Assembly (NCBI RefSeq): GCF_002252525.1
Contig: NZ_NNRM01000039.1
Span: forward strand, 248,001-312,000
Direction: 5' to 3'
DNA length: 64,000 nucleotides
From: Brucella pseudogrignonensis
GTDB lineage: Bacteria; Pseudomonadota; Alphaproteobacteria; Rhizobiales; Rhizobiaceae
The position numbers and the translations under genes are program-made. Positions 15,082-48,620 of the stretch are shown here, in pieces. The notes below the pieces were generated by a model. The model was not told where the DNA came from. It made no database searches and saw nothing but the letters and a program-made list of their open reading frames with translations. The stretch's first letter is position 1; each line of letters begins with the position of its first letter.

Positions 15082-16722
15082 CTACGCGGAAACGACCCGA
15101 CTATCACTCAACAGCCCGGCTTCCTCCATTATCGGATAAGCAACGGACACGATATGCGCATTGATGCGTTTGAGATCACGCAACATATCGAGATGGATGG
15201 AGCTTGTCCGAAGGCTCTCGATCCTTCCATCACGAAGCCTTGCCAGATGCTGTTCGGAGGAAAGCTTCTCCATGCGCCGTACTTCGATCTTGATCTCCAT
15301 CAAACGCTTCGCGAGGTTGAAATCTCGAGTCGCAATGATGGTTTGGGCGGTCCGGAGATTGTCGACCGTCAGATCGAAGAGATGGGTCAGCTCCCCAAAT
15401 CCGTCCTCTGAAAACGTCAAGCCCAATGCGGCTTTCTTGGCGAGTGTCGGCAGCAGGCTTTTCTCGACAATGTCGCCGATATGTTCCAGATTAACCGCAT
15501 AATCGATCAGCTCAGCGGATCGCCTTTGATTTTCCGCGCTCATTTCCTGGCGACCGAGTTGCGAAAGATAGACCTTTACCTCCTGATGCAGAAAATCAAC
15601 ACGCTGTTCGAGCTCTGAAATGGTCGTCGCCGCAGCGGGGTCGCTGTTATGAAATGCCGAAGAGGCACGCATCAGCATACGCTCAATCAGATCACCGATG
15701 CCCAATACCTCGCGGGTAGCGCTCGCCAACGCCATCACCGGCGTCGTCAGTTGCTGTCCATCAAGAAAGCGGGGGCCTGTTTCATTTTGCTGAGGTTGGG
15801 GAACCAGTCGAAACATCAGTTTGGAGAACACGCCCGCAAGCGGCCATGCGACGATCGCAAGTACAATGTTGAACACCAGATGTGCATCGACCGGGAGCTT
15901 TATTGGTGACAACGATAAGCTCGCGGCGAGATCTGCGCCATATTGGGCGAAAGGCAGTGCGATCAGACAACCAACCGCACGAACAACCAGATTGCCCAAA
16001 GTGACCCGTCTTGCAGAGGCCTCGCCGCTCAGGGAAGCAATCACCGGCGGCACAGCGCCACCCAGATTGGCGCCAAGAACCAGAACAATGATTAAGGCGG
16101 AAGGCAAAAGGCCGGTCGCCGCAAGCGACAGGATCAGCACCACCGCTGCCAGACTCGATGATGAAATAACCGCAATCGCCGCGGAAAAAAGTAGCGCAAT
16201 TGGCCAAGCATTGTCCAGCATGGCAATGAAACTCGCCACGGCTGGAGAGTGACGCACCGGTTCCGTCGCCATGCTAAGAAGATGCAGGGAAAGCAGCATC
16301 AGCCCGACACCCATCAGCATGGTGCCGACGCCGCGCCGACTGCCCGTTGCCTTCTTTTGCATGCCTATGCCGGCGAGGATGAGCAATGGCGACATCCATT
16401 CTATCCCGGTGGAGACAATCCACGCCGTGACCGCTGTACCAACATTGGCGCCCAGCAGTACAATCTGCGCCATGCTTTGCTGGATAAATTCGCGTTCGAC
16501 AAAGGAAGCAACCATCAGTGCAGTGGCCGTGGAACTCTGAAGACCGATCGTTGCAACAAACCCGGCTGCAAAGGAACGGAGTCGCGTACTGGTGCCGCGC
16601 GCGAGCCCGGCGCGCAAGCTGGCCCCGAACGCCCGTTGGACGCCATCTTTCACCTGTGTCAATCCAAACAGTAGCAGTGCAACCGCACCGCACAGGTTGA
16701 TTATGACGATCGTCGATTCCAT
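15082..16722 (-). CDS. Na/Pi-cotransporter family protein with PhoU-like domain
   Basis: 546-aa membrane protein. The N-terminal half contains the two inverted Na/Pi repeats, with the diagnostic QSSTATALM / GANVGTAVTAW and SSSSLAAVVLIL / GANLGGAVPP motifs. The C-terminal cytosolic part (from about residue 335) is helical and PhoU-like. Bacterial members move phosphate with sodium, and some are believed to export it. It is the last gene of a minus-strand run that begins with an ABC importer, and lies 59 bases after surE. In this setting I infer that it handles phosphate released by the upstream hydrolases; direction is not decided by sequence. Confidence 0.88.
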   Translation of the reverse strand: MESTIVIINLCGAVALLLFGLTQVKDGVQRAFGASLRAGLARGTSTRLRSFAAGFVATIGLQSSTATALMVASFVEREFIQQSMAQIVLLGANVGTAVTAWIVSTGIEWMSPLLILAGIGMQKKATGSRRGVGTMLMGVGLMLLSLHLLSMATEPVRHSPAVASFIAMLDNAWPIALLFSAAIAVISSSSLAAVVLILSLAATGLLPSALIIVLVLGANLGGAVPPVIASLSGEASARRVTLGNLVVRAVGCLIALPFAQYGADLAASLSLSPIKLPVDAHLVFNIVLAIVAWPLAGVFSKLMFRLVPQPQQNETGPRFLDGQQLTTPVMALASATREVLGIGDLIERMLMRASSAFHNSDPAAATTISELEQRVDFLHQEVKVYLSQLGRQEMSAENQRRSAELIDYAVNLEHIGDIVEKSLLPTLAKKAALGLTFSEDGFGELTHLFDLTVDNLRTAQTIIATRDFNLAKRLMEIKIEVRRMEKLSSEQHLARLRDGRIESLRTSSIHLDMLRDLKRINAHIVSVAYPIMEEAGLLSDSRVVSA

Positions 16723-16781
16723 AAAACTGCTCCGACAGCCTTCTTCAGACGGTTCGCGCGACGTTGCTCATCGCAAAAGCT

Positions 16782-17528
16782 TCAATTCGGTCCCATGACA
16801 GCTAAACTCTGCGCGTCAAGCACTGTCTCCCCGAACCAGTTCAAGCGACTAACGCAAACATTGCCCCGATCAATCAGGTCATTGTCGTCACCCGCCTGCG
16901 CGGCATGCGCACGTCCACGCGGGACGATAATCTCTGTCTTGTCACCCTTCTTCGACAGGATTTCCGCCCGGGTTCCAATTTTATCGCGACCGATGCGGGG
17001 TTGAACGATTGCAGCAGGTAGACCCTCTGGCAGATTGACGCTCAACCAGTGCCCTTCCAGAAAAATCGCTTCCCGCTGCGCCAATATCCGACGGATAAAG
17101 CCGGCAAGCCAATCAGTATCGCTTTCGGCTTCTGCCGCCTGTTTGACGCGCGAAAACCCGATGGCCGGAATACCCCAGAATGTCGCCTCACGCGCGATCC
17201 CCAACGTGCCGGAATAAGCAAGATCCTCAGCGACATTGCGACCGTCATTGATCCCGGACAGCACCAGATCCGGCTTCTTCTGTCCGTCAAAAAGCCAGGC
17301 CATTGCCGCAACCACGCAGTCGGCCGGTGTCCCTGAACAGGCGTATCGGCGCTCGGTATGCTCAACCATCGTCAGCGGTCGCCCGATGGTGATCGATGCT
17401 CCGGCAGCGGTCCGCTTGCCATCAGGGGCCACCACCCAAACATCATCACTGAGGTACCGTGCAGCTCTGGCCAGCCGGTCAAGGCCTGGTGCGTCAATGC
17501 CATCATCGTTTGCAACAAGAATTCTCAT
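16782..17528 (-). CDS. surE: SurE 5'/3'-nucleotidase
   Basis: 248-aa SurE-fold phosphatase that removes phosphate from nucleoside monophosphates and related phosphoesters. The signature NDDGIDAPGL at the N-terminus (metal-binding double Asp), the SGTPADCV segment and the SGIN.G.N motif (VLSGINDGRNVAEDLAYSGT) are all present. In many alphaproteobacteria surE is next to pcm and serS; here it stands instead in an ABC-importer operon, 11 bases after an MBL-fold hydrolase gene. This is therefore probably a second, pathway-specific SurE. Start ATG 17528 opens with MRILVANDDG as in the family. Confidence 0.93.
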   Translation of the reverse strand: MRILVANDDGIDAPGLDRLARAARYLSDDVWVVAPDGKRTAAGASITIGRPLTMVEHTERRYACSGTPADCVVAAMAWLFDGQKKPDLVLSGINDGRNVAEDLAYSGTLGIAREATFWGIPAIGFSRVKQAAEAESDTDWLAGFIRRILAQREAIFLEGHWLSVNLPEGLPAAIVQPRIGRDKIGTRAEILSKKGDKTEIIVPRGRAHAAQAGDDNDLIDRGNVCVSRLNWFGETVLDAQSLAVMGPN

Positions 17529-17539
17529 TTCATCTCCAT

Positions 17540-18691
17540 TCAGATCGACAGCTGCGATCCTGACATTGCCGTGGTCACAAGAGTGGTCAGATAGGGCTTT
17601 AGTTCTTCAAGTTTTTCGGATGTGCACGAATGCCCCAGTGCCATGGGTTTTCCAGCCGCCTGCCACAGCGCCAGGTTCTCGGACCGGGTTGGATGCGTGG
17701 GAAGGCGAATCCAGGTTGCCCGCCCTTGTTCGAGCAGGGCCTGAGCCGGCGTGTTTTCGGGAACGTGCCCCGTCAGCAGAACCGCTGCCTGTTCATCGAC
17801 AGCTTGTCTGAGCGCGCCTATCGATGGCCCGGCACTGCCCATGCCGTCATAGGTCATCAAAGGGCAGTCCGGCAAAGCCGATCCTTCCCGCCAGTCCAAG
17901 GCGCGTTCCAGTTTGTGGCGTAAACTTCTTGCTGTCTGTGCAGAGACTGCGTCAGGGACGCCGATCTGGGCGATCAGTGACCGGCGCATATCGTGATGAA
18001 TTGCAAAAGATCCGGGCAAGATCGCCATCAGCTCCAGTGGCTTCCCGGATAATGGCACCGGAAGGACCAGCTTGCCTCTATGAGCCTCGATGAAATCTCC
18101 GATCTGACCAATGCGATCGCCCGCAGAAACCGGGTCGCCGCCATAAGAAGCGTCCAGAATGACCAAATCACAACGAGGCAGTGCGTCCATCACGAAAACC
18201 TCGCTGTTTGGAACCACATCCGCGCAATACACAACACGCTTTGATGGTGTCGTAACCGAAAACCAGACCCCGCCCGCCACATGTCCCGAACGGCCGGATA
18301 GGATCTCGCTCTCACCCATCCGGATGGATTGCCCCGGCGTGAACAGTTTTATGCGCGCATCTTTTAATGGATGCGCCCGACGATGCGACGGATCAGCATA
18401 TTGGTTCAGCATCGCTTCCGCGTCGTCATGCGTTTCACGCGTCATATAGAAGGTACCTTGAAACCCGCATGCGCGAAGCCAATACAAACCTCCGATATGA
18501 TCTTCATGGGCGTGCGAGATAAACACCGCATCTAGCGTCGCCACATCGCGTTCAGCAATGGCCGGATAATAGTCCCGTCCTTTTGCGCCCACCTTGATGC
18601 CCACATCGAACAGAAGGCGGCGATCACTGTGGATGCCGACGCTGGTTCGACCCTTTTCGCCAAAACCGCCATAGAGTTCAATCATCATCAT
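17540..18691 (-). CDS. MBL-fold metallo-hydrolase, beta-CASP/RNase J-like
   Basis: 383-aa metallo-beta-lactamase-fold protein. The zinc motif HAHEDHIGG is at about residue 60; a further His is in SGRSGHVAGG and an Asp in VVYCADV. The middle resembles the beta-CASP insertion (DLVILDASYGG, then GKLVLPVPLSGKPLELM) and the end shows LTGHVPENTPA and MALGHSCTSEKLEEL, similar to the terminal histidine motifs of RNase J-like proteins. It is shorter than RNase J and lacks its C-terminal domain. The ATG overlaps the ATPase stop. Substrate is not readable; operon position next to SurE favours a phosphodiester. Confidence 0.8.
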   Translation of the reverse strand: MMMIELYGGFGEKGRTSVGIHSDRRLLFDVGIKVGAKGRDYYPAIAERDVATLDAVFISHAHEDHIGGLYWLRACGFQGTFYMTRETHDDAEAMLNQYADPSHRRAHPLKDARIKLFTPGQSIRMGESEILSGRSGHVAGGVWFSVTTPSKRVVYCADVVPNSEVFVMDALPRCDLVILDASYGGDPVSAGDRIGQIGDFIEAHRGKLVLPVPLSGKPLELMAILPGSFAIHHDMRRSLIAQIGVPDAVSAQTARSLRHKLERALDWREGSALPDCPLMTYDGMGSAGPSIGALRQAVDEQAAVLLTGHVPENTPAQALLEQGRATWIRLPTHPTRSENLALWQAAGKPMALGHSCTSEKLEELKPYLTTLVTTAMSGSQLSI

Positions 18692-19761
18692 CGCGACGCT
18701 CCATCCGGAATGACCCAGCCGGAATTGATAGCGATATGGATCGTTTCGCCTTGCTGGCCACCCAAGCCATCGGCAAGGTCAAACGTGAGTTCCGTGCTGG
18801 GATGATTGACCGGACAGGCTTCAATCCGCGCGCCGCCACCCCGATAGATGCGGCGCCTGACCGAAAGCGCGATGCCCGTATCGTCGCACAGCTCAATATT
18901 CTGCGATCGAATACAGATTTTTGCGTCAGCCTGCACCGCCTGCCCCGGCACGCAGCGCATGACCGCCTTCTGTCCCAACACCTCAACTGCACATTGGCCA
19001 TCTTTTTCCGCACCGATGACTTGCGCAGGAAGCACCATGCCATGGGCTATGAACGAAGCCACCATCTCGCTCTGAGGTCGCTCATAAAGCTCCCGCGGCG
19101 TTGCGAATTGGATAAGCTTTCCCCTGTCCATCACCGCAATTCGGTCCGCCAGGGCCATGGCTTCTGCCTGATCATGGGTGATGTAGACAATTGTTGTGCC
19201 TGTGCGCTTGTGGAAAGATGCAAACTCATCCTCCATCGAAGCGCGCAGGTGCACATCCAAATTGGCGAGAGGTTCATCAAACAAGACCAGCGAAGGCGCA
19301 GCTACCAGACATCGCGCAAGTGCCACGCGCTGACGCTGGCCGCCAGACAGACTGGCGGGGCGCCGATCACCAAGGCCCGTGAGATCAACCAATGTGAGTG
19401 CTTCCGTCACGCGGCGTTCCAGTTCTGGCTTTGCAACGCGTGCCACGCGAAGGCTGTAACCGACGTTTTCTGCAACCGTCATATGCGGCCATAATGCATA
19501 GTTCTGAAACACGATGCCGACCCTGCGGTTTTCTGGCTCGACATGCCTGTCGGCGGCTGACATGACATTGTCACCCACCTGGATTGCCCCACTGGTGATC
19601 TTTTCAAAGCCCGCGATCGCACGCAATAAGGTGGTTTTCCCGCAGCCTGACGGTCCAAGAACCGCTACAAATTCACCATTTTTAATGTCCAGTGTCACAT
19701 CCGAAAGCGCATCGAAGTTTCCGAAGCTTTTGGTGACATTGTTAATTTTCAATCCCGCCAT
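18688..19761 (-). CDS. ABC transporter ATP-binding protein (Fbp/Afu/Pot type)
   Basis: 357-aa nucleotide-binding subunit. Walker A GPSGCGKTT, Q-loop VFQNYALWPH, signature LSGGQRQRVALARC, Walker B LVLFDEPLANLD and the switch His in YITHDQAEA are complete. The C-terminal 120 residues form a TOBE-type domain. This build (CUT1/Fbp/Afu/spermidine class) is shared by importers of iron, polyamines, phosphonates and sugar phosphates. It overlaps the permease gene by 13 bases and the next hydrolase gene by 4. Confidence 0.95.
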   Translation of the reverse strand: MAGLKINNVTKSFGNFDALSDVTLDIKNGEFVAVLGPSGCGKTTLLRAIAGFEKITSGAIQVGDNVMSAADRHVEPENRRVGIVFQNYALWPHMTVAENVGYSLRVARVAKPELERRVTEALTLVDLTGLGDRRPASLSGGQRQRVALARCLVAAPSLVLFDEPLANLDVHLRASMEDEFASFHKRTGTTIVYITHDQAEAMALADRIAVMDRGKLIQFATPRELYERPQSEMVASFIAHGMVLPAQVIGAEKDGQCAVEVLGQKAVMRCVPGQAVQADAKICIRSQNIELCDDTGIALSVRRRIYRGGGARIEACPVNHPSTELTFDLADGLGGQQGETIHIAINSGWVIPDGASR

Positions 19762-21455
19762 GGCAGCACTCCATCAGGCAGACGCCGCGCGAACAGGTTC
19801 GTCGACAGCATGAGAAAGATTGTGACCACGATCGTTACAATCGACGTGGCAGCGGCATAGGTGGAATCGCCACCCTGTTCGAAGGAGAAAATGACGACAC
19901 CGATCGTTTCAGAACCTGACGCCCACAAGAGTGCAGATACTGTCAGCTCACTGAACGCAGTCAGAAAGATGAGAACCCCACCGGCAAGCGTCGCCGGCGC
20001 AACAAGGGGAAAGATGATCGTCCGCAAGCGCATGAACAATGATGCGCCCGCCACCTGGGCTGCCTCTTCCAGCGACCTGTCAATCTGGTGAAGCCCGCTC
20101 ACGGTCGGTCGCAGGGCAAGGACAAAGAAGCGCGCAAGATAGGCGTAGAGAATGATCCAGATCGTGTTGTAGATATGAAAGCCCAACAGCGGTAGCGGCT
20201 TTAGAAACAGCAGCAGCGACGCAATCGCCATAACAACACCCGGCAATGCGTAGGGCAGCTCAGCAGTCAGATTGAACAGTCTGGTCCACCAGCGCTTACG
20301 CCAGGTTGTGATATAGGCCAGAGGTACAGCGATCAGCACTGCGAAGAATGCTGCCGCAAGCGACAGTCCAAAACTGTTGAGGAATGCGCGTTTGGTTGCG
20401 GCATGTTCGAACAGGATGAAGGAGTAGTTCGAGAATGTCAGGGTTTCCCATCTCAACGGCGTGCCATAGGCATTGACGAGAGAAGTCAGAACAAGGCCAA
20501 AAATCGGCAATAGAAGCACCGCCACGACAATCAGCATCATCACGATCTCGGTCCATATCCTGTAACCTCCCAGTTCAAACGGACTGGCCGGAAGCGATGT
20601 GGAGGCGATCCGGTAATCGCGCCAGCGGGAAACATAATCCTGTGCGACAATCCCCGCGATCGCGATAACGCCGATCAAAGTCGACAATGTTGCGACATCG
20701 CTGAGAACAGCAGGTCCACCACCGCTCAATCGCTGGTAAATCAAGGTTGGCAGCACGAGATAGTTGGCGGGAATCCCCAGAAAGGCCGGAATACCAAAAT
20801 TACCAACACAGGACACGAAAGTCAGGGCGGTCGCACCGATGATCGACGGCGCCATTAGGGGGACAATGATCGTTCGCAATACAGTCAGTTTGTTTGCGCC
20901 ACTGCTCAACGCAGCTTCGATCAGTTCACGGGGGAGCTTACGCAGTCCCGCTCTGACGATTAGAAACACCAGCGGCCCGTACTGAACACCAAGAAGCGCA
21001 ATGATGCCGGTGGATGAATAGAGCGGGTTGCGCGATCCGAGTGGCGGGGCCATTCCGATCATTTTGAGGAAGGGACTTGCCGGACCAAACAATTGCAGCC
21101 AGGCAAGCGCTGTCACCTGCGGGGCGATCAGCAGCGGAGTGACATACAGAAAGATGAAAATCGCCCGCCCGCGAATATCGGTCAGGCTGACGAGCAGAGC
21201 AACACTGGTCCCCAGCACCACCGCAAAAAGGGTTCCAAAAATCCCGACATAGATCGAATTCCAGGTTGCCGCCCAGGTCGCAGACGAGGAAAAGACCCGG
21301 CTCATTGCTTCGAGCGCCGTGCCTTGGGCCGGGAACACAACCTCGACAAGCAGGCGCCCCATCGGCAAAAGCGAAAGCAGCGACACGACAATAATCGTCA
21401 CGGCGATCAGAGCCCTGTCCCGGCCCTGACCGCTGGTTACAGCGATTTTTTCCAT
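19749..21455 (-). CDS. ABC transporter permease, fused double-domain (FbpB/AfuB type)
   Basis: 568-aa inner-membrane protein with about 12 spans in two halves, each with its own EAA loop: ELIEAALSSGANKLTVLRTIIVPLMAPS in the first and RSLEEAAQVAGASLFMRLRTIIFPLVAPAT in the second. One polypeptide thus supplies both channel subunits, as in FbpB, AfuB and the phosphonate PhnV/U-like permeases. Lies 12 bases after the binding-protein gene. Confidence 0.94.
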   Translation of the reverse strand: MEKIAVTSGQGRDRALIAVTIIVVSLLSLLPMGRLLVEVVFPAQGTALEAMSRVFSSSATWAATWNSIYVGIFGTLFAVVLGTSVALLVSLTDIRGRAIFIFLYVTPLLIAPQVTALAWLQLFGPASPFLKMIGMAPPLGSRNPLYSSTGIIALLGVQYGPLVFLIVRAGLRKLPRELIEAALSSGANKLTVLRTIIVPLMAPSIIGATALTFVSCVGNFGIPAFLGIPANYLVLPTLIYQRLSGGGPAVLSDVATLSTLIGVIAIAGIVAQDYVSRWRDYRIASTSLPASPFELGGYRIWTEIVMMLIVVAVLLLPIFGLVLTSLVNAYGTPLRWETLTFSNYSFILFEHAATKRAFLNSFGLSLAAAFFAVLIAVPLAYITTWRKRWWTRLFNLTAELPYALPGVVMAIASLLLFLKPLPLLGFHIYNTIWIILYAYLARFFVLALRPTVSGLHQIDRSLEEAAQVAGASLFMRLRTIIFPLVAPATLAGGVLIFLTAFSELTVSALLWASGSETIGVVIFSFEQGGDSTYAAATSIVTIVVTIFLMLSTNLFARRLPDGVLPWRD

Positions 21456-21467
21456 CTGTCTCTGGTC

Positions 21468-22454
21468 CTAGCCGCCAAACATTCCCGTGAAGCGCGATTT
21501 GTCGGCATCCGTGTTCTTTAGAACCTTCTGCGTATCGATCGGCATGATCTTCACAGTCAAGCCGTCAGGAAGCCATGCGGGTTTTCCGACCGACGTCTTA
21601 GCCGGCAAATAGCCCTGCTTCAAAGCAAGTTGCTGGCCAGCATCGGAGAGGATGAAACGAATGAATTTCTTGGCATCCTCAGGATTTTTGCTTGATGAAA
21701 GAATGGCGACAGGTTCGGTGACCGCGGGAACCCCTTCTTCAGGAAAGACAAACTCGACCGGAGAGCCTTTCGCTTTGGCATTGAGCGCCATGAAATCAAC
21801 CAGAATTCCATAGGGCTTTTCCCCGCTGGCGATTGATTTGAGCACCGCGCCATTTCCGCGAACGCTGACCACTTCATTCGCCTTGAGCGCCTCAAAAAAC
21901 TTCCAGCCTAGATTGTCATTGGCGACAAATCCACTGAGCAGAAAAGCCGCCGCCCCCGAATAAAGTGGGCTCGGCATGACCACCATCCCCTTATATCCCG
22001 GCTTTTCCAAATCGGACCAATGTTGGGGCTTTTGATCGGCAGCTGAGTTATAGGCGATGCCCGTGGTGATCAGCTTGCTGCCAAAGTAATATCTGTCAGG
22101 ATCAAATGAACCGGCTTCAAATCCGTCGAGGCTCGCCTCGGAAAACTGCAACAAACGCTTATCGGCTTTCAGGCTTTCCATACTCACCGCGTCGGCAATC
22201 AGAAGCACATCGGCTTGCGGAGCGCCGGCTGAAAACTCAGCAGCAAGCTTACTCATAATATCGCTGGTCCCGGAACGGTACACCTGAACATCAATGTCGG
22301 GATTAAGCTTCTTGAATTCTTCAACTGTACGTGCAGCATCGGCATCGGGTTGCGATGTGTAAAGCGTCAGCGTTCCCGCGAAAGCGGTCCCGGTCATCAT
22401 CAGACTGGCAAGCCCTGCCGTGAGGATTCTCATCCCCCAGATTCTTCTCTTCAT
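21468..22454 (-). CDS. ABC transporter substrate-binding protein (Fbp/Afu family)
   Basis: 328-aa periplasmic binding protein. Signal peptide about residues 1-27 (ends GTAFAG), mature start TLTLYTSQPDAD, then SAGAPQADVLLIADAVS, KPGYKGMVVMPSPLYSGAAAF and the C-terminal KNPEDAKKFIRFILSDAGQQLA typical of the iron(III)/AfuA/2-AEP family. I do not see the paired tyrosines that bind iron in FbpA in the expected place after KGMVVMP, so a ligand other than iron is plausible. AfuA from Actinobacillus, a relative, is known to bind hexose phosphates. The start at 22454 has AAGGGAGGAAGC upstream; a longer reading from 22481 would use that site as codons. Confidence 0.9.
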   Translation of the reverse strand: MKRRIWGMRILTAGLASLMMTGTAFAGTLTLYTSQPDADAARTVEEFKKLNPDIDVQVYRSGTSDIMSKLAAEFSAGAPQADVLLIADAVSMESLKADKRLLQFSEASLDGFEAGSFDPDRYYFGSKLITTGIAYNSAADQKPQHWSDLEKPGYKGMVVMPSPLYSGAAAFLLSGFVANDNLGWKFFEALKANEVVSVRGNGAVLKSIASGEKPYGILVDFMALNAKAKGSPVEFVFPEEGVPAVTEPVAILSSSKNPEDAKKFIRFILSDAGQQLALKQGYLPAKTSVGKPAWLPDGLTVKIMPIDTQKVLKNTDADKSRFTGMFGG

Positions 22455-22541
22455 TGCTTCCTCCCTTAGAAACGACGTCAAACGGCGTTCCTGTTCCTCC
22501 CTGTAGCGGGACGTTAATCACGTCCTCAGCAATCATAATAG

Positions 22542-22575
22542 TGTTCATTTGTTCTTTGTCAAATACAATTGAACA
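22542..22575. promoter_or_regulatory. Operator candidate for the SorC-family regulator
   Basis: TGTTCATTTG (22542-22551) and CAATTGAACA (22566-22575) form an inverted repeat matching at nine of ten positions, separated by 14 bases. It lies between the divergent transporter operon (start 22454) and regulator (start 22647), so one site could control both. Confidence 0.6.
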
Positions 22576-22646
22576 GTTGACGACAGGGGGATGATTGTTG
22601 CTATAGATCGACTTGTAACGGAAAAACCGGGGAGCGAGCAGCAGGA

Positions 22647-23597
22647 ATGGCAGGCAATAACTGGCCGTTGAGATCCTCTGATCTCAAAGTTAAGACCGTC
22701 TGGCTCTACTATGTTGAGGGCATGACTCAGGAACAAATCGCCGAGCAGCTCGGTGTCAGTCGCGTCAAGATCATGCGCACACTTGCAGCTGCAACCTCGG
22801 AAGGGATCGTTGTCACGCGGATCAATGCCGCAACAGCCGAACAAGTCGAACTGGAACGTCGGCTGGAGGAAAAATGGGGCCTCTCATCCGCCATAGTTGT
22901 ACCCACGCCAGAGAATGGCGGCAATCTGGAAAAGGCTCTCGGCAACGCCGTCGCTTCCTATCTTGACCAGGAAATGCAGGATGGAATGACCCTGGCTATC
23001 GGCGGGGGTGCCACGCTCTACGCCTGCGTTCAATTTCTAGAGCAAAGAAAACTTAACGACGCTTGCGTTGTCGCCTTGGTGGGAAGCCTTCCGCATTCAC
23101 GCTGGATAAATCCGTCTGTTGTTGCGGCAAGAGTCGCCGAAGTCTACCAGGTCGACAGTTATCAGATCACCGCACCCGTTATTCTCGACGAACAGGGGCT
23201 TCGCAACTTGTTGTGGCGCCAGACAGAACTTCGAAGTTTAAAGGCGCTCGCGGCAAAAGCCGACATCGCGCTTCTGACGGTCGGTGAAATCTCGGAAAAT
23301 GCCACAATTTTCCGCCATGGCATTGTTCCCTCCGACCTCATCAGCCCATTGCAGGCTTGCGGTGCCGTCGCCAATATTCTGTGTTACTTCGTCGACGAAA
23401 ATGGACATCTCGTCGATCACGAAATCAACCAGCGGGTGATGTCGATCGAACTGAGCACAGTTGCGGGCGTCGAAAGGGTCGTGCTCGCGGCGGGAGGTCC
23501 CACAAAGGTCACCGCGATGAAGGCCGCACTTAAAATTGTCAAAGCGAGCGTGCTCATCACCGACAGCCAGACGGCAGCCGCTCTTTTGCAAGATTGA
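22647..23597 (+). CDS. SorC/DeoR-type sugar-binding transcriptional regulator
   Basis: 316-aa regulator. The N-terminal HTH is clear (YYVEGMTQEQIAEQLGVSRVKIMRTLAAA, residues about 22-52). The rest is the SorC sugar-binding domain: AIGGGATLYACVQFL, VALVGSLPHSRWINPSVVAARVA, and the GIVPSDLISPLQACGAVANILCYFVDENG segment near the C-terminus. Family members (CggR, SorC, DeoR of B. subtilis) are controlled by phosphorylated sugars or related metabolites. It is divergent from the ABC-MBL-SurE operon, which strongly suggests it senses that pathway's substrate or product. Confidence 0.92.
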   Translation: MAGNNWPLRSSDLKVKTVWLYYVEGMTQEQIAEQLGVSRVKIMRTLAAATSEGIVVTRINAATAEQVELERRLEEKWGLSSAIVVPTPENGGNLEKALGNAVASYLDQEMQDGMTLAIGGGATLYACVQFLEQRKLNDACVVALVGSLPHSRWINPSVVAARVAEVYQVDSYQITAPVILDEQGLRNLLWRQTELRSLKALAAKADIALLTVGEISENATIFRHGIVPSDLISPLQACGAVANILCYFVDENGHLVDHEINQRVMSIELSTVAGVERVVLAAGGPTKVTAMKAALKIVKASVLITDSQTAAALLQD

Positions 23598-23641: not shown

Positions 23642-24004
23642 CTAGACTTTGCGACTACGCAGGAAATCGACAAGACCGACATGGGTGATGGCTTCGAACT
23701 CACGGGTTGCCTGATCGAACTGTTGTCGCTGGGCCAGCATCATCAGCAATACTGCCCGCATTTCCGAGGAAACGCCGAACCTTTCCCAACGCTTGGCGAC
23801 GTGGGTGGGAATACCTGCCGCATCACAAAAATCGGCAATGCTACTGTATCCCAGTTCCAGCAAAGCCACGCGCAGATCAGACGCGGACATCCGCTCTTCG
23901 ACGGCATGGTCGTGCAGTCGCTCAGCAAAAAGCTGGATATCTCGCGGTGACGATTCCGCAATTTTTGTCAGAAATCCCCCGACTTCGTTCAGTAATCTTG
24001 ACAT
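23642..24004 (-). CDS. Hypothetical protein with HTH-like segment (120 aa)
   Basis: Helical protein without signal peptide or membrane span. The middle (GYSSIADFCDAAGIPTHVAKRWERFGV) looks like a helix-turn-helix of the kind that reads DNA, but I do not recognise the family. GGAGAGATTAAA precedes the ATG, and codon use looks natural. It is convergent with the SorC-type gene. Confidence 0.6.
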   Translation of the reverse strand: MSRLLNEVGGFLTKIAESSPRDIQLFAERLHDHAVEERMSASDLRVALLELGYSSIADFCDAAGIPTHVAKRWERFGVSSEMRAVLLMMLAQRQQFDQATREFEAITHVGLVDFLRSRKV

Positions 24005-45334: not shown

Positions 45335-46808
45335 GATCCTATGCAAGCTCGCCGCGGAGCTTGATAATTTGCCTCCGCTTTTCCATGGAGGATGATCATG
45401 AGCGCTGAACGTGTCAACGATTGTTATGTCGCCCTCGAACTCAGCCAACGCACATGGCTGATCGGCTTTCTTTTGCCCGGCACGGATAAGGTTCAGATAA
45501 TGACGGTTGCCGGTGGTGACGCCGAAGCTCTTCTGTCGGCGCTCGGAAGGATTGAAAGCCTGGCAGGAACTCGGTTGGCTGCAGAATGCACCATGGTGTC
45601 GATGCGGGTCTGCTACGAGGCCGGTTATGACGGCTTCTGGCTTGCCCGTTATCTTATCGATCGCGGCATCGATACCACAATCCTGGACCCATCCAGCTTT
45701 CTGGTTTCGCGACGAGGCCGACGTGTGAAGACAGATCGCATCGATGTCGAAGCGATGGTGTTTACGCTGAAGGCGTATTTGCTCGGAGACAGGTCAGTTT
45801 GTCGACCAGTTCGGCTGCCCTCAGTCGCGGAAGAAGACGCGAAGCGTCTTTCTCGGGAACGCACGCAATTGAAGAGGGAGCGCACGCGGCACGTCAATCG
45901 CATCCGCGCCTTGCTCGTGCTTCACGGTATCCGCTCTGTTCCTGGTCTTTGGGGAGGACGCTGGAAGGAGGCACTTTCGAATATCCGGACCGGTGATGGC
46001 AGGGAATTAGGGCGGTTCATCTTCCGTGAGCTTTGCCGCCAGTTTGAACGGCTCGATCTCGTGCACTCGCAGCTCAAGAGCTTAGAGAAGGAGCGCATTC
46101 AGGCTTGCGAGACCGAAGGAGCCATCAACGACAGCGGGAAGATCAGGGTGCTGAAGCAGCTTGACGGCATCGGTGAAGTGGGTGCCACACAGTTGGTCGC
46201 CGAAGTGTACCATCGAACATTCAAAAACCGAAAGCATCTGGCCTCTTACCTAGGACTGTCACCCAGCCCCTATTCCAGTGGCGAGGTCCATCGGGATCAA
46301 GGCATCAGCAAAGCCGGAAACAAACAGGCTCGAGTGATGCTCGTCGAACTGGCGTGGTGCTGGCTTAAATACCAGCCACAGAGCGAACTGACGCGATGGT
46401 ATCGCGCCCGCTTCTCGGGGCATGGAAGTCGGTCCGGGAAGGTCGGAATAGTCGCCTTGGCCCGCAAACTCGCAATAGCGTTCTGGCGGTTTATCGAAGA
46501 TGGCGTAGTCCCTGAAGGGGCTACACTAGCAGTCGCCACCAAGTAAGGTTTGACTGCCGACGGGCAGTTGAAGGGGAAGCGCGGCTACCGTGCGTAGAGA
46601 TGGACATCAGACGCCGAGTTGTAGTTTGGTAACGCGCTTCAAGCAGACGCCTGGCCACCATGAATCGGGATTATGGTCGGGAGCAATGGCTCCAGCCGAA
46701 TACAAGTCGAGGCACCAGTGTGCCAGATCGCCAGACGACTGCGAATAACTGGAGGAAAGCAATTTTGGGCAAGATGGAAGAAGGATTGACAAACACCGCT
46801 TCATACAA
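45335..46808 (+). mobile_element. IS110-family element A inserted in IS3 OrfB
   Basis: Boundaries are set by rejoining the interrupted transposase gene: GGAATTCGTTATA | GATCCTATGC on the left and TTCATACAA | GTCTCTACG on the right, restoring the codons WRRD-YNEFRPHS. About 1474 bases. No target duplication is evident, as expected for IS110. Confidence 0.8.
45398..46546 (+). CDS. IS110-family transposase A
   Basis: 382-aa DEDD recombinase that moves IS110-type elements through a circular intermediate. N-terminal RuvC-like domain (CYVALELSQRTWLIGF, LAAECTMVS, VKTDRIDVEAM) and C-terminal Transposase_20 domain (LKQLDGIGEVGATQLVAEVYHRTFKNRKHLASYLGLSPSPYSSG...GISKAGNKQARVMLVELAW). Start 45398 has GGAGG six bases upstream; an ATG at 45392 is too close. 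Note the first acidic residue lies in ALELS rather than the usual GIDVS/GLDLA. Complete and without stops, so possibly active. Confidence 0.9.
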   Translation: MSAERVNDCYVALELSQRTWLIGFLLPGTDKVQIMTVAGGDAEALLSALGRIESLAGTRLAAECTMVSMRVCYEAGYDGFWLARYLIDRGIDTTILDPSSFLVSRRGRRVKTDRIDVEAMVFTLKAYLLGDRSVCRPVRLPSVAEEDAKRLSRERTQLKRERTRHVNRIRALLVLHGIRSVPGLWGGRWKEALSNIRTGDGRELGRFIFRELCRQFERLDLVHSQLKSLEKERIQACETEGAINDSGKIRVLKQLDGIGEVGATQLVAEVYHRTFKNRKHLASYLGLSPSPYSSGEVHRDQGISKAGNKQARVMLVELAWCWLKYQPQSELTRWYRARFSGHGSRSGKVGIVALARKLAIAFWRFIEDGVVPEGATLAVATK

Positions 46809-46898
46809 GTCTCTACGCCAATCCTCCATCTTAATGCGGGCGTCGTCAAGACTCATGAACCAGTGGGCGTTCAGGCACTCGGCTCTGAACTTGCCATT
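46809..46898 (-). pseudogene. IS3-family OrfB, second fragment
   Basis: 90 bases encoding, on minus, NGKFRAECLNAHWFMSLDDARIKMEDWRRD, the part of an IS3 transposase just after the catalytic Glu. It is held between IS110 element A on the left and element B on the right. Confidence 0.85.
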
Positions 46899-48254
46899 GA
46901 TGGGGGAGACGGTCCCGCTCCAACCCGGTTCGTCGTATGATGAATAGCCAACTCAACCAGGAGCCATTGATATGATTGCCAGCACAATCGGCCTTGATCT
47001 GGCCAAGCATAACTTTCACGTCCATGCGGTGGATGCCGCGGGTTTAGTGATTAAAACCGCTGCGCTCCGGCGAAGCGAGATGATCAAGTTCTTTCAGAGT
47101 GCTAAGCCATGCCTTGTTGGCATGGAAGCTTGCGCTACCGCACACTACTGGGCCCGCGAACTGACGAAGCTTGGCCACGAAGTCAAATTGATCCCGCCTT
47201 CGTACGTTAAGCCGTTTGTACGGCGCGGCGCTAAGAATGATGCTGCGGACGCTGCAGCCATCTGCGAAGCCGTCCGTCGACCTGATATGCGTTTCGTTGC
47301 GATCAAATCGGAAGCCAACCAGGGCTTCCTGATGTTACATCGAGCTCGAGGTCTGCTGGTGAGACAACGGACCATGGCAGTATGTGCGATCCGCGCTCAC
47401 CTTGCTGAGTTTGGAATTATCTTCGGTCAAGGTCGACAACGCATCGAGACCATAATCCCTTCGATAGAGGAAGTCGCAGCGTCGTTACCAGAACATGCCC
47501 GGTTCGCATTGAACAGTCTTATGCGAACGGTCGGCGAGTTGAACACGCAGATAGAGGGAATTGAGACGAAGCTGGCGGAAGTGGGCCGATCAGATCCAGT
47601 CTCCAATCTGCTATCTTCGATCCCAGGTGTCGGCCCAATCACGTCTACGGCTATCGCTGCGACCGTTCCGAACGCGAGAATGTTTCGCTCTGGTCGAGAG
47701 TTTGCCGCCTGGCTGGGCTTGACCCCACGTCAAAACTCCAGCGGTGGCACAACTCGATTAGGAGGCATAACGAAGCAAGGAGATGCGTACCTGCGTCATC
47801 TGCTTGTGATCGGTGCCAGAAACATCGTTCGGTATCCAAAAGCGCGAGCGAAAGTCGGCGGAGCTTGGATCGACGCTTTGCTGCAACGACGGCGTCCTAT
47901 GATTGTGGCCGTCGCCGTGGCCAACAAGCTTGCCCGGATCATCTGGGCGATGATGACGAATGGAGAAATGTTCAGAGAGGCACACGTTAAGGCCGCATAA
48001 GGCCGCAACCCAATCCAGTTGGTGTAAGGTGCAGAAGCAACAGATGGTCATCCAGCGGAGCTGAGGATCGAGCAAACCCGGAGAGCTTTAGGCGCCATTC
48101 AAGCGCGACCCGTTGATGAGGCCTCGATCCGCGTACTCCATCAGGGCCAGCGACCATTGTATCGGTCGCAGTTAAAGGCCGAATACATGAACGCACCCGA
48201 ATGATGACCTGAACTTGCAGAAAGCCTCTTGCGCCCGCGGGGCCGTCTATACAT
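46899..48254 (+). mobile_element. IS110-family element B inserted in IS3 OrfB
   Basis: Edges follow from rejoining the host gene: TTGCCATT | GATGGGGG on the left and CTATACAT | GAAGCTCTC on the right, restoring YIESF-NGKFRAEC. About 1356 bases. It has 73 bases before the transposase ATG and about 254 after the stop. Confidence 0.8.
46972..48000 (+). CDS. IS110-family transposase B
   Basis: 342-aa DEDD transposase of the IS1111/IS110 group, different from transposase A. N-terminal STIGLDLAKHNFHVHAVDAAG and VGMEACATAHYWAREL, then VRRGAKNDAADAAAICEA; C-terminal LSSIPGVGPITSTAIAATV, FAAWLGLTPRQNSSGGTTRLGGITKQGDAYLR and ANKLARIIWAMM. Start 46972 follows CAGGAGCC. All acidic positions look intact, so it is likely mobile. 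Confidence 0.93.
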   Translation: MIASTIGLDLAKHNFHVHAVDAAGLVIKTAALRRSEMIKFFQSAKPCLVGMEACATAHYWARELTKLGHEVKLIPPSYVKPFVRRGAKNDAADAAAICEAVRRPDMRFVAIKSEANQGFLMLHRARGLLVRQRTMAVCAIRAHLAEFGIIFGQGRQRIETIIPSIEEVAASLPEHARFALNSLMRTVGELNTQIEGIETKLAEVGRSDPVSNLLSSIPGVGPITSTAIAATVPNARMFRSGREFAAWLGLTPRQNSSGGTTRLGGITKQGDAYLRHLLVIGARNIVRYPKARAKVGGAWIDALLQRRRPMIVAVAVANKLARIIWAMMTNGEMFREAHVKAA

Positions 48255-48620
48255 GAAGCTCTCGATGTAGCTGTTATCTGTCGGCTTGCCGGGCCGGGAG
48301 AAGTCGAGCACCACCCCCTTATGGTAAGCCCATAGATCCAGGTCACGAGAGATAAATTCGCTGCCATTATCCACACGAATAACCGCAGGATAACCGACCT
48401 GACGACATATCCGTTCGAGGGTCTGCACCACATCCTCACCACGATAACTGAAGCGGGCATCAACTGCTGGCGAGAAGCGTGAGAATGTATCAACCACCGT
48501 CAGGATGCGGATCTTCCGTCCTGTCGCCAATTGATCATGGACAAAATCCATTGCCCAAACATGGTTGGAATGGGTCGCATCTGTGCGATCAGCGCGAGGC
48601 TTCGCCTTCACCGCCGTAAC
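48255..48620 (-). pseudogene. IS3-family OrfB, first fragment
   Basis: Minus-strand codons KPRADRTDATHSNHVWAMDFVHDQLATGRK, VVDTFSRFSPAVDARFSY, VIRVDNGSEFISRDL and PGKPTDNSYIESF, the DDE core of an IS3-type transposase (Asp in AMDFV, Asp in VDNGSEF, Glu in YIESF). The gene is cut right after the catalytic Glu by element B, and its own N-terminal ~100 residues are missing at the junction with the phosphoketolase relic. Confidence 0.9.

What the first reader, a model, noticed from the sequence alone, without database searches (positions are those of the whole stretch)
15082..23597. Six-gene SorC-controlled operon joining an Afu/Fbp-type importer to MBL hydrolase, SurE and a Na/Pi protein
Seen: binding protein, fused permease, ATPase, MBL-fold hydrolase, SurE and Na/Pi-PhoU protein lie head to tail with overlaps or gaps of 4-60 bases, facing a SorC-family regulator across an inverted repeat. 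Known: SorC regulators respond to phosphorylated metabolites, AfuA relatives bind sugar phosphates, SurE is a phosphomonoesterase, Na/Pi proteins move phosphate. Inference: the operon imports a phosphorylated or phosphodiester-containing compound, cleaves it (MBL, then SurE) and disposes of or stores phosphate. I know no described pathway with exactly this set.
Basis: partly seen in the sequence, partly recalled or inferred. Interest (0 to 1): 0.78.

Follow-up and report, generated by a model that had tools for sequence, protein, structure and literature searches.

The report
Phosphodiester-import operon with nuclease-fold enzyme
This bacterial operon probably imports a phosphate-linked compound, cuts it with an enzyme of the RNA-cutting CPSF-73 fold and removes the phosphate, and related operons keep the importer and cutter while using unrelated phosphatases and regulators.

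The parts
21468..22454 (-). Fbp/AfuA-type periplasmic binding protein (start at ATG 22454; an in-frame TTG lies at 22481)
   Evidence: best solved matches by sequence VcA0625, P5PA, AfuA; by fold VcA0625 and AfuA first, with ferric-binding proteins close behind
19749..21455 (-). fused two-domain ABC permease (568 aa)
   Evidence: two BPD_transp_1 stretches
18688..19761 (-). ABC ATPase (357 aa; UgpC best among NCBIfam models, below its cut-off)
17540..18691 (-). beta-CASP metallo-hydrolase, proposed phosphodiesterase (383 aa)
16782..17528 (-). SurE phosphomonoesterase, operon-specific paralogue (248 aa)
   Evidence: split from housekeeping SurE at 100/100
15082..16722 (-). Na/Pi cotransporter-PhoU protein, proposed Pi exporter
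   Evidence: Na_Pi_cotrans and PhoU; YjbB promotes Pi export per PMC11389368 passages; that YjbB has this domain make-up is recalled
22647..23597 (+). SorC-family regulator, closest solved relative B. subtilis DeoR
22542..22575 (.). palindromic operator TGTTCAATTGT-N12-ACAAATGAACA enclosing a -35-like TTGACA (22557-22562, minus strand)
   Evidence: only occurrence in the genome at up to 3 mismatches with this spacing
22580..22597 (-). weak PHO-box-like site (11 of 14)
   Evidence: suggestive only
23642..24004 (-). conserved 120-aa protein of unknown function, convergent with SorC
   Evidence: no Pfam/NCBIfam match; a relative within 7.5 kb of the MBL gene in 27 of the 44 closest loci

Best explanation
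A substrate-inducible operon for using a small phosphodiester. (1) The AfuA-like binding protein and ABC importer bring an organic phosphate diester into the cytoplasm intact (inferred). (2) The compact beta-CASP metallo-hydrolase cleaves the diester to a phosphomonoester and an alcohol (inferred). (3) The operon-specific SurE removes the phosphate (inferred). (4) SorC binds a palindrome that straddles the -35 element of the operon promoter and is released by the phosphomonoester intermediate (conserved palindrome shown; binding and effector inferred). (5) Where present, the Na/Pi-PhoU protein releases surplus Pi (inferred from YjbB). The parts, their co-conservation, the folds and the exchange of phosphatases are shown; ligand and reactions are not.
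For: Importer beside the MBL gene in 73 of 79 named loci. Phosphatase detected in 69 of the 98 loci (of 112 tallied) with a complete same-strand importer: SurE in 44 (one also with a histidine phosphatase), dual-specificity phosphatase in 13, histidine phosphatase and/or HAD in 12 (loci). Different folds in one operon slot point to a phosphomonoester step. Catalytic signatures in copies near the MBL gene: SurE 47 of 47, HisPhos 11 of 12, DSP 11 of 13, HAD 6 of 7. 47 importer-operon and 10 unlinked beta-CASP proteins split at 100/99. Operon SurE is a dedicated paralogue. SBP: by sequence VcA0625, P5PA and AfuA lead; T63, S166 and G167 align with AfuA phosphate-shell S37, S148 and G149 and are conserved in 41, 44 and 43 of 44 rows. 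Parallel SorC, SurE, phosphoesterase and Ugp-like importer in two same-genus genomes. Precedent: acc operon, where the phosphodiesterase product is the regulator's ligand (PMC4526662 passages).
Confidence: 0.65

Rival explanations
1. Nucleotide-type ligand: the importer takes up a nucleic-acid fragment (2',3'-cyclic nucleotide, dinucleotide or similar) that the beta-CASP enzyme cuts as a nuclease and SurE converts to nucleoside. A narrower form of the best explanation.
For: Whole-length match to RNase TTHA0252 and CPSF-73; SurE is named 5'/3'-nucleotidase; the one HAD tested (L033) is best matched by the PNKP phosphatase domain; SorC closest to DeoR of deoxynucleoside catabolism; the one LacI tested (L031) scores best with RbsR, CytR third; a urate-catabolism gene (uraH) lies just upstream of two DSP-type operons, L032 and L034.
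Against: AfuA-type pockets are small (inference); apart from uraH I saw no nucleoside or purine catabolic genes in the annotated importer-operon regions; DeoR binds its effector covalently and the lysine of the aligned segment is V145 here (that it is the bonding residue is recalled); DeoR/GlpR and Ugp-like partners point to glycerol or sugar phosphates.
Confidence: 0.25
2. Phosphomonoester importer: the ligand is a sugar phosphate; SurE removes its phosphate and the MBL enzyme performs another hydrolysis.
For: SBP closest in sequence to VcA0625, P5PA and AfuA, which bind phosphomonoesters.
Against: AfuA sugar residues H205 and E229 are V219 and V245; the MBL gene stays where no phosphatase is seen (Firmicutes) and has a phosphodiesterase fold; the parallel module also holds a phosphoesterase.
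Confidence: 0.15
3. Phosphonate (2-aminoethylphosphonate-like) uptake.
For: Best NCBIfam matches of SBP and permease are PhnS2 and PhnU2.
Against: Scores far below cut-offs (143.6 vs 392.75; 161.1 vs 593.25 bits); no phn gene names in the annotated regions; a C-P bond needs neither a phosphodiesterase nor SurE.
Confidence: 0.04
4. Ferric iron importer with unrelated passenger enzymes.
For: 'Iron ABC transporter permease' is the annotation in most plasmid records read (for example); FbpA-type fold, practically tied with AfuA.
Against: The MBL gene stays with the importer across phyla; the AfuA paper shows that such annotation can be wrong (passages); phosphate-side residues conserved.
Confidence: 0.02

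Closest known systems
acc (agrocinopine/agrocin 84) operon of Agrobacterium
   Same: Importer for a phosphodiester, phosphodiesterase (AccF), phosphatase (AccG), repressor whose ligand is the phosphomonoester product (PMC4526662 passages).
   Different: Here AfuA-type SBP, beta-CASP enzyme, SurE and SorC. I did not compare the Acc sequences.
AfuABC (hexose-phosphate) and P5PAB (PLP) importers
   Same: SBP fold and phosphate-side residues.
   Different: Sugar-binding H205 and E229 not kept; operons here carry hydrolases.
Ugp system (ugpBAEC-Q)
   Same: Imports glycerol phosphates and diesters and pairs import with a phosphodiesterase (recalled); a Ugp-like importer stands beside SorC-SurE in same-genus loci L183/L184.
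   Different: The window's importer and phosphodiesterase are of other families.
beta-CASP nucleases (RNase TTHA0252, CPSF-73, aCPSF1, RNase J)
   Same: Whole-chain fold, metal ligands, C-terminal histidines.
   Different: Shorter (383 aa), Beta-Casp Pfam model not matched in the window protein, separate importer-linked branch.
B. subtilis DeoR (SorC family)
   Same: Whole-length sequence match, E 7.7e-39; TTGAACA/TTCAA-type half-sites in the operator.
   Different: The palindrome here straddles the -35 element; the lysine of the aligned effector segment is V145.

Membership tests
beta-CASP metallo-hydrolases | HxHxDH, later His and Asp metal ligands | tested here: met
   H60, H62, D64, H65, H137, D158, H333 in 41 of 41 rows; H309 in 39 of 41
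beta-CASP metallo-hydrolases | beta-CASP domain inserted in the MBL fold | tested here: met
beta-CASP metallo-hydrolases | nuclease activity | not testable with these tools
   needs an enzyme assay
AfuA hexose-phosphate binding proteins | phosphate-side residues S37, S148, G149, T150 | tested here: met
   T63, S166, G167 (T150 is A168) by the alignment; conservation
AfuA hexose-phosphate binding proteins | sugar residues H205, D206, E229 (each essential for binding in the paper) | tested here: not met
   V219, D220, V245
Fbp ferric-binding proteins | iron-ligand tyrosine pair | not tested
   fold shared; tyrosine positions were not mapped
PhnS2/T2/U2 2-aminoethylphosphonate transporter | curated NCBIfam scores | tested here: not met
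   143.6 vs 392.75, 312.2 vs 457.7, 161.1 vs 593.25 bits
SorC regulators | N-terminal DNA-binding part plus Sugar-bind domain | tested here: met
   PF04198 E 8.7e-58 and weak HTH-type matches; whole-length match to DeoR 8r7y
SurE nucleotidases | SurE domain with NDDG motif | tested here: met
   PF01975 E 5.8e-48; NDDG in 47 of 47 copies near the MBL gene
Na/Pi-PhoU (YjbB-like) proteins | Na_Pi_cotrans and PhoU domains | tested here: met
   two stretches of each; direction of transport not testable
acc-type phosphodiester operon | importer, phosphodiesterase-fold enzyme, phosphatase and regulator in one locus | tested here: met
   gene content; a likeness of layout, not of descent
acc-type phosphodiester operon | homology to AccA/AccF/AccG/AccR | not tested
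   Acc sequences were not fetched

The most novel reading that the evidence does not exclude
The nuclease fold that cuts eukaryotic mRNA ends (beta-CASP) has a separate bacterial branch used for nutrition: importer-coupled enzymes that take apart imported phosphodiesters, possibly short RNA/DNA fragments or cyclic nucleotides, with exchangeable phosphatase and regulator modules.
Probability: 0.3. Interest if true: 0.8.

Novelty: new variant of a known kind. Interest (0 to 1): 0.62.

Why it matters
Proteins now annotated 'iron ABC transporter' and 'MBL fold hydrolase' in soil, plant-associated and marine bacteria would be a route for using organic phosphodiesters, a poorly explained part of environmental phosphorus and carbon. 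It would also be a beta-CASP branch outside RNA/DNA processing, or an importer system for nucleic-acid fragments. The exchange of phosphatases makes the pathway logic directly testable.

Tried and rejected
An apparent fusion in L125 (open frame 730 aa) had an N-terminal half without family match and was dropped. The genus name was sought through 16S (no match in the assembly) and plasmid DNA (the ten listed of 32 records match at IS elements or are unannotated); not settled. Published accounts: (listings and abstract starts only) showed nothing on this gene set; this covers only the held open-access library. Fe(III) and phosphonate readings are scored low above; the AepX paper (PMC8316502, passages) showed no link to such hydrolases. 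Pho control: PHO-box-like sites of 11-12 of 14 in 22 of 46 upstream regions, window included, but many rows are close relatives, the site lies downstream of the operator in Mesorhizobium and upstream of it in the window, and the two same-genus rows score 8 and 9; left as a lead. Pfam and NCBIfam gave no name for the 120-aa neighbour. In one search types C and D do not form single branches.

Full report
Observation. The junctions are 12 (gap), 13 and 4 (overlaps), 11 and 59 (gaps) bases. The SBP start is better set at 22454.

Conservation. The MBL protein was the bait. Plasmid records gave 119 matches (30 listed), of which I read ten regions; eight more came and six, mostly as outgroup. A script placed the window's families on them by tblastn (tallies). 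In 73 of 79 the SBP, permease and ATPase lie on the same strand within 7.5 kb. The six others are L058, L070, L078, L081, L093 and L100; in L058, L081 and L093 the stretch before or around the gene is cut short, and L100 has an importer on the opposite strand. Of the 44 loci of the window's type (L044-L087), 42 have SurE, 29 a SorC gene within 7.5 kb (27 of them facing this SBP gene; not L070 and L087), 27 a relative of the 120-aa neighbour and 5 a Na/Pi protein (three on the same strand, of which L075's lies upstream). Na/Pi is also seen in L026, L028 (opposite strand), L130 and L131. In an even sample of the class 8 of 385 genomes, the window's own included, match at 1e-30, so the system is scattered.

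Exchanged parts. Other operons keep the importer and the MBL gene but carry a LacI regulator with a dual-specificity phosphatase (L031, L032, L034, L106, L107, L111, L113, L114), that phosphatase without a detected regulator (L124, L132, L133, L135, L140), a DeoR/GlpR regulator with a histidine phosphatase and a HAD (L033, L123, L127, L129, L134, L144; L139 with only the HAD detected), or a histidine phosphatase alone (L029, L030, L141, and L138 on an Enterobacter plasmid; L142 with LacI). Among the 98 of 112 tallied loci with a complete same-strand importer, a phosphatase was detected in 69. The 112 are not an unbiased sample: they include chosen plasmid regions and relatives of the window. 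Paenibacillus and Clostridia make up 28 of the 79 loci, 26 with the same-strand importer, and showed no phosphatase with my queries; the three checked have a LysR gene upstream on the opposite strand, and L100 an AraC-type one. Among 35 same-genus genomes (own included) three carry the SurE type (G000, G003, G008), G002, G014 and G020 the DSP type (L133, L132, L135), and G003 has both (L131, L182).

The phosphatase. The genome has a second, ordinary SurE. In a tree of 48 operon and 30 housekeeping copies the two split at 100/100 (the tool warns of long branches). Of 34 genomes searched, 33 have SurE; of the 21 in the genus, 16 have one match, G000, G003, G008 and G012 have two or three, and G006 has pieces.

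Regulation. SorC is closest to B. subtilis DeoR (E 8e-39), whose effector deoxyribose-5-phosphate binds covalently (PMC11229326 passages); the lysine of the aligned segment is V145 here. The palindrome encloses a -35-like TTGACA, which fits repression, and is unique in the genome at up to three mismatches with this spacing. PHO-box-like sites appear in 22 of 46 upstream regions and may add phosphate control in some species.

A parallel module. The extra SurE genes of the genus led to L183 (G012) and L184 (G008): SorC (43%), SurE (46% and 44%), a phosphoesterase gene on the opposite strand, and a four-gene importer. Families were run on L184 only: the phosphoesterase is calcineurin-like (Pfam 72.9 bits; best NCBIfam CpdA far below cut-off) and the importer is UgpC-, UgpB-, UgpA- and UgpE-like, all below NCBIfam cut-offs; its SBP matches solved E. 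coli UgpB at 3.5e-44, while the phosphoesterase has no solved relative at 1e-5. Their SurE is sister to the window type and apart from housekeeping SurE at 99/98. A regulator-phosphatase pair thus stands beside two unrelated importers, each with a phosphodiesterase-like enzyme. This is the strongest single hint that the substrate class is phosphodiesters.

Mechanism. I propose import, beta-CASP cleavage, SurE dephosphorylation, induction by the phosphomonoester and Pi release through the Na/Pi-PhoU protein; YjbB, a protein of that kind, promotes Pi export (PMC11389368 passages). The acc operon works in this way with its own parts (PMC4526662 passages). The arrangement is shown; every chemical step is inferred. 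A nucleotide-type ligand remains open: uraH upstream of L032 and L034, the PNKP-like HAD and the nuclease fold favour it; the Ugp-like partner and GlpR-type regulators favour glycerol or sugar phosphates.

Novelty. The logic is known; the combination and the importer-linked beta-CASP branch are, as far as reach, undescribed.

Noticed in passing
window 23642-24004: Conserved 120-aa protein without Pfam or NCBIfam match, tail-to-tail with SorC; a relative lies within 7.5 kb of the MBL gene in 27 of the 44 closest loci.
   Followed up: partly
L183:6796-14128 and L184:6696-14015: Sister SorC-SurE pair beside a calcineurin-like phosphoesterase and a Ugp-like importer in two same-genus genomes.
   Followed up: yes
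L088-L122 (Paenibacillus, Clostridia): Same importer plus MBL gene, with LysR genes beside the three checked, Beta-Casp matched in L088 and L100, RMMBL in L088, and no phosphatase found nearby.
   Followed up: partly
L070: Limoniibacter: MBL-SurE lies next to a peptide-type importer with a gamma-glutamyltranspeptidase instead of the AfuA-type importer.
   Followed up: partly
L032:3600-3953 and L034:3668-4021: A urate-catabolism gene (uraH) lies just upstream of two DSP-type operons, a weak hint at purine-related ligands.
   Followed up: no
L053: A record titled Bacillus subtilis SK6B4 holds a locus whose SurE groups with Pseudochrobactrum; probably mislabelled or contaminated.
   Followed up: no
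window about 46808-48617: DNA 86.5% identical to a plasmid stretch annotated as IS110 and IS3 family transposases.
   Followed up: no
window 22580-22597 and 21 other upstream regions: PHO-box-like direct repeats (11-12 of 14) near the SorC operator.
   Followed up: partly
L131 and L182: One same-genus genome (G003) carries both the SurE-type and the DSP-type operon.
   Followed up: partly
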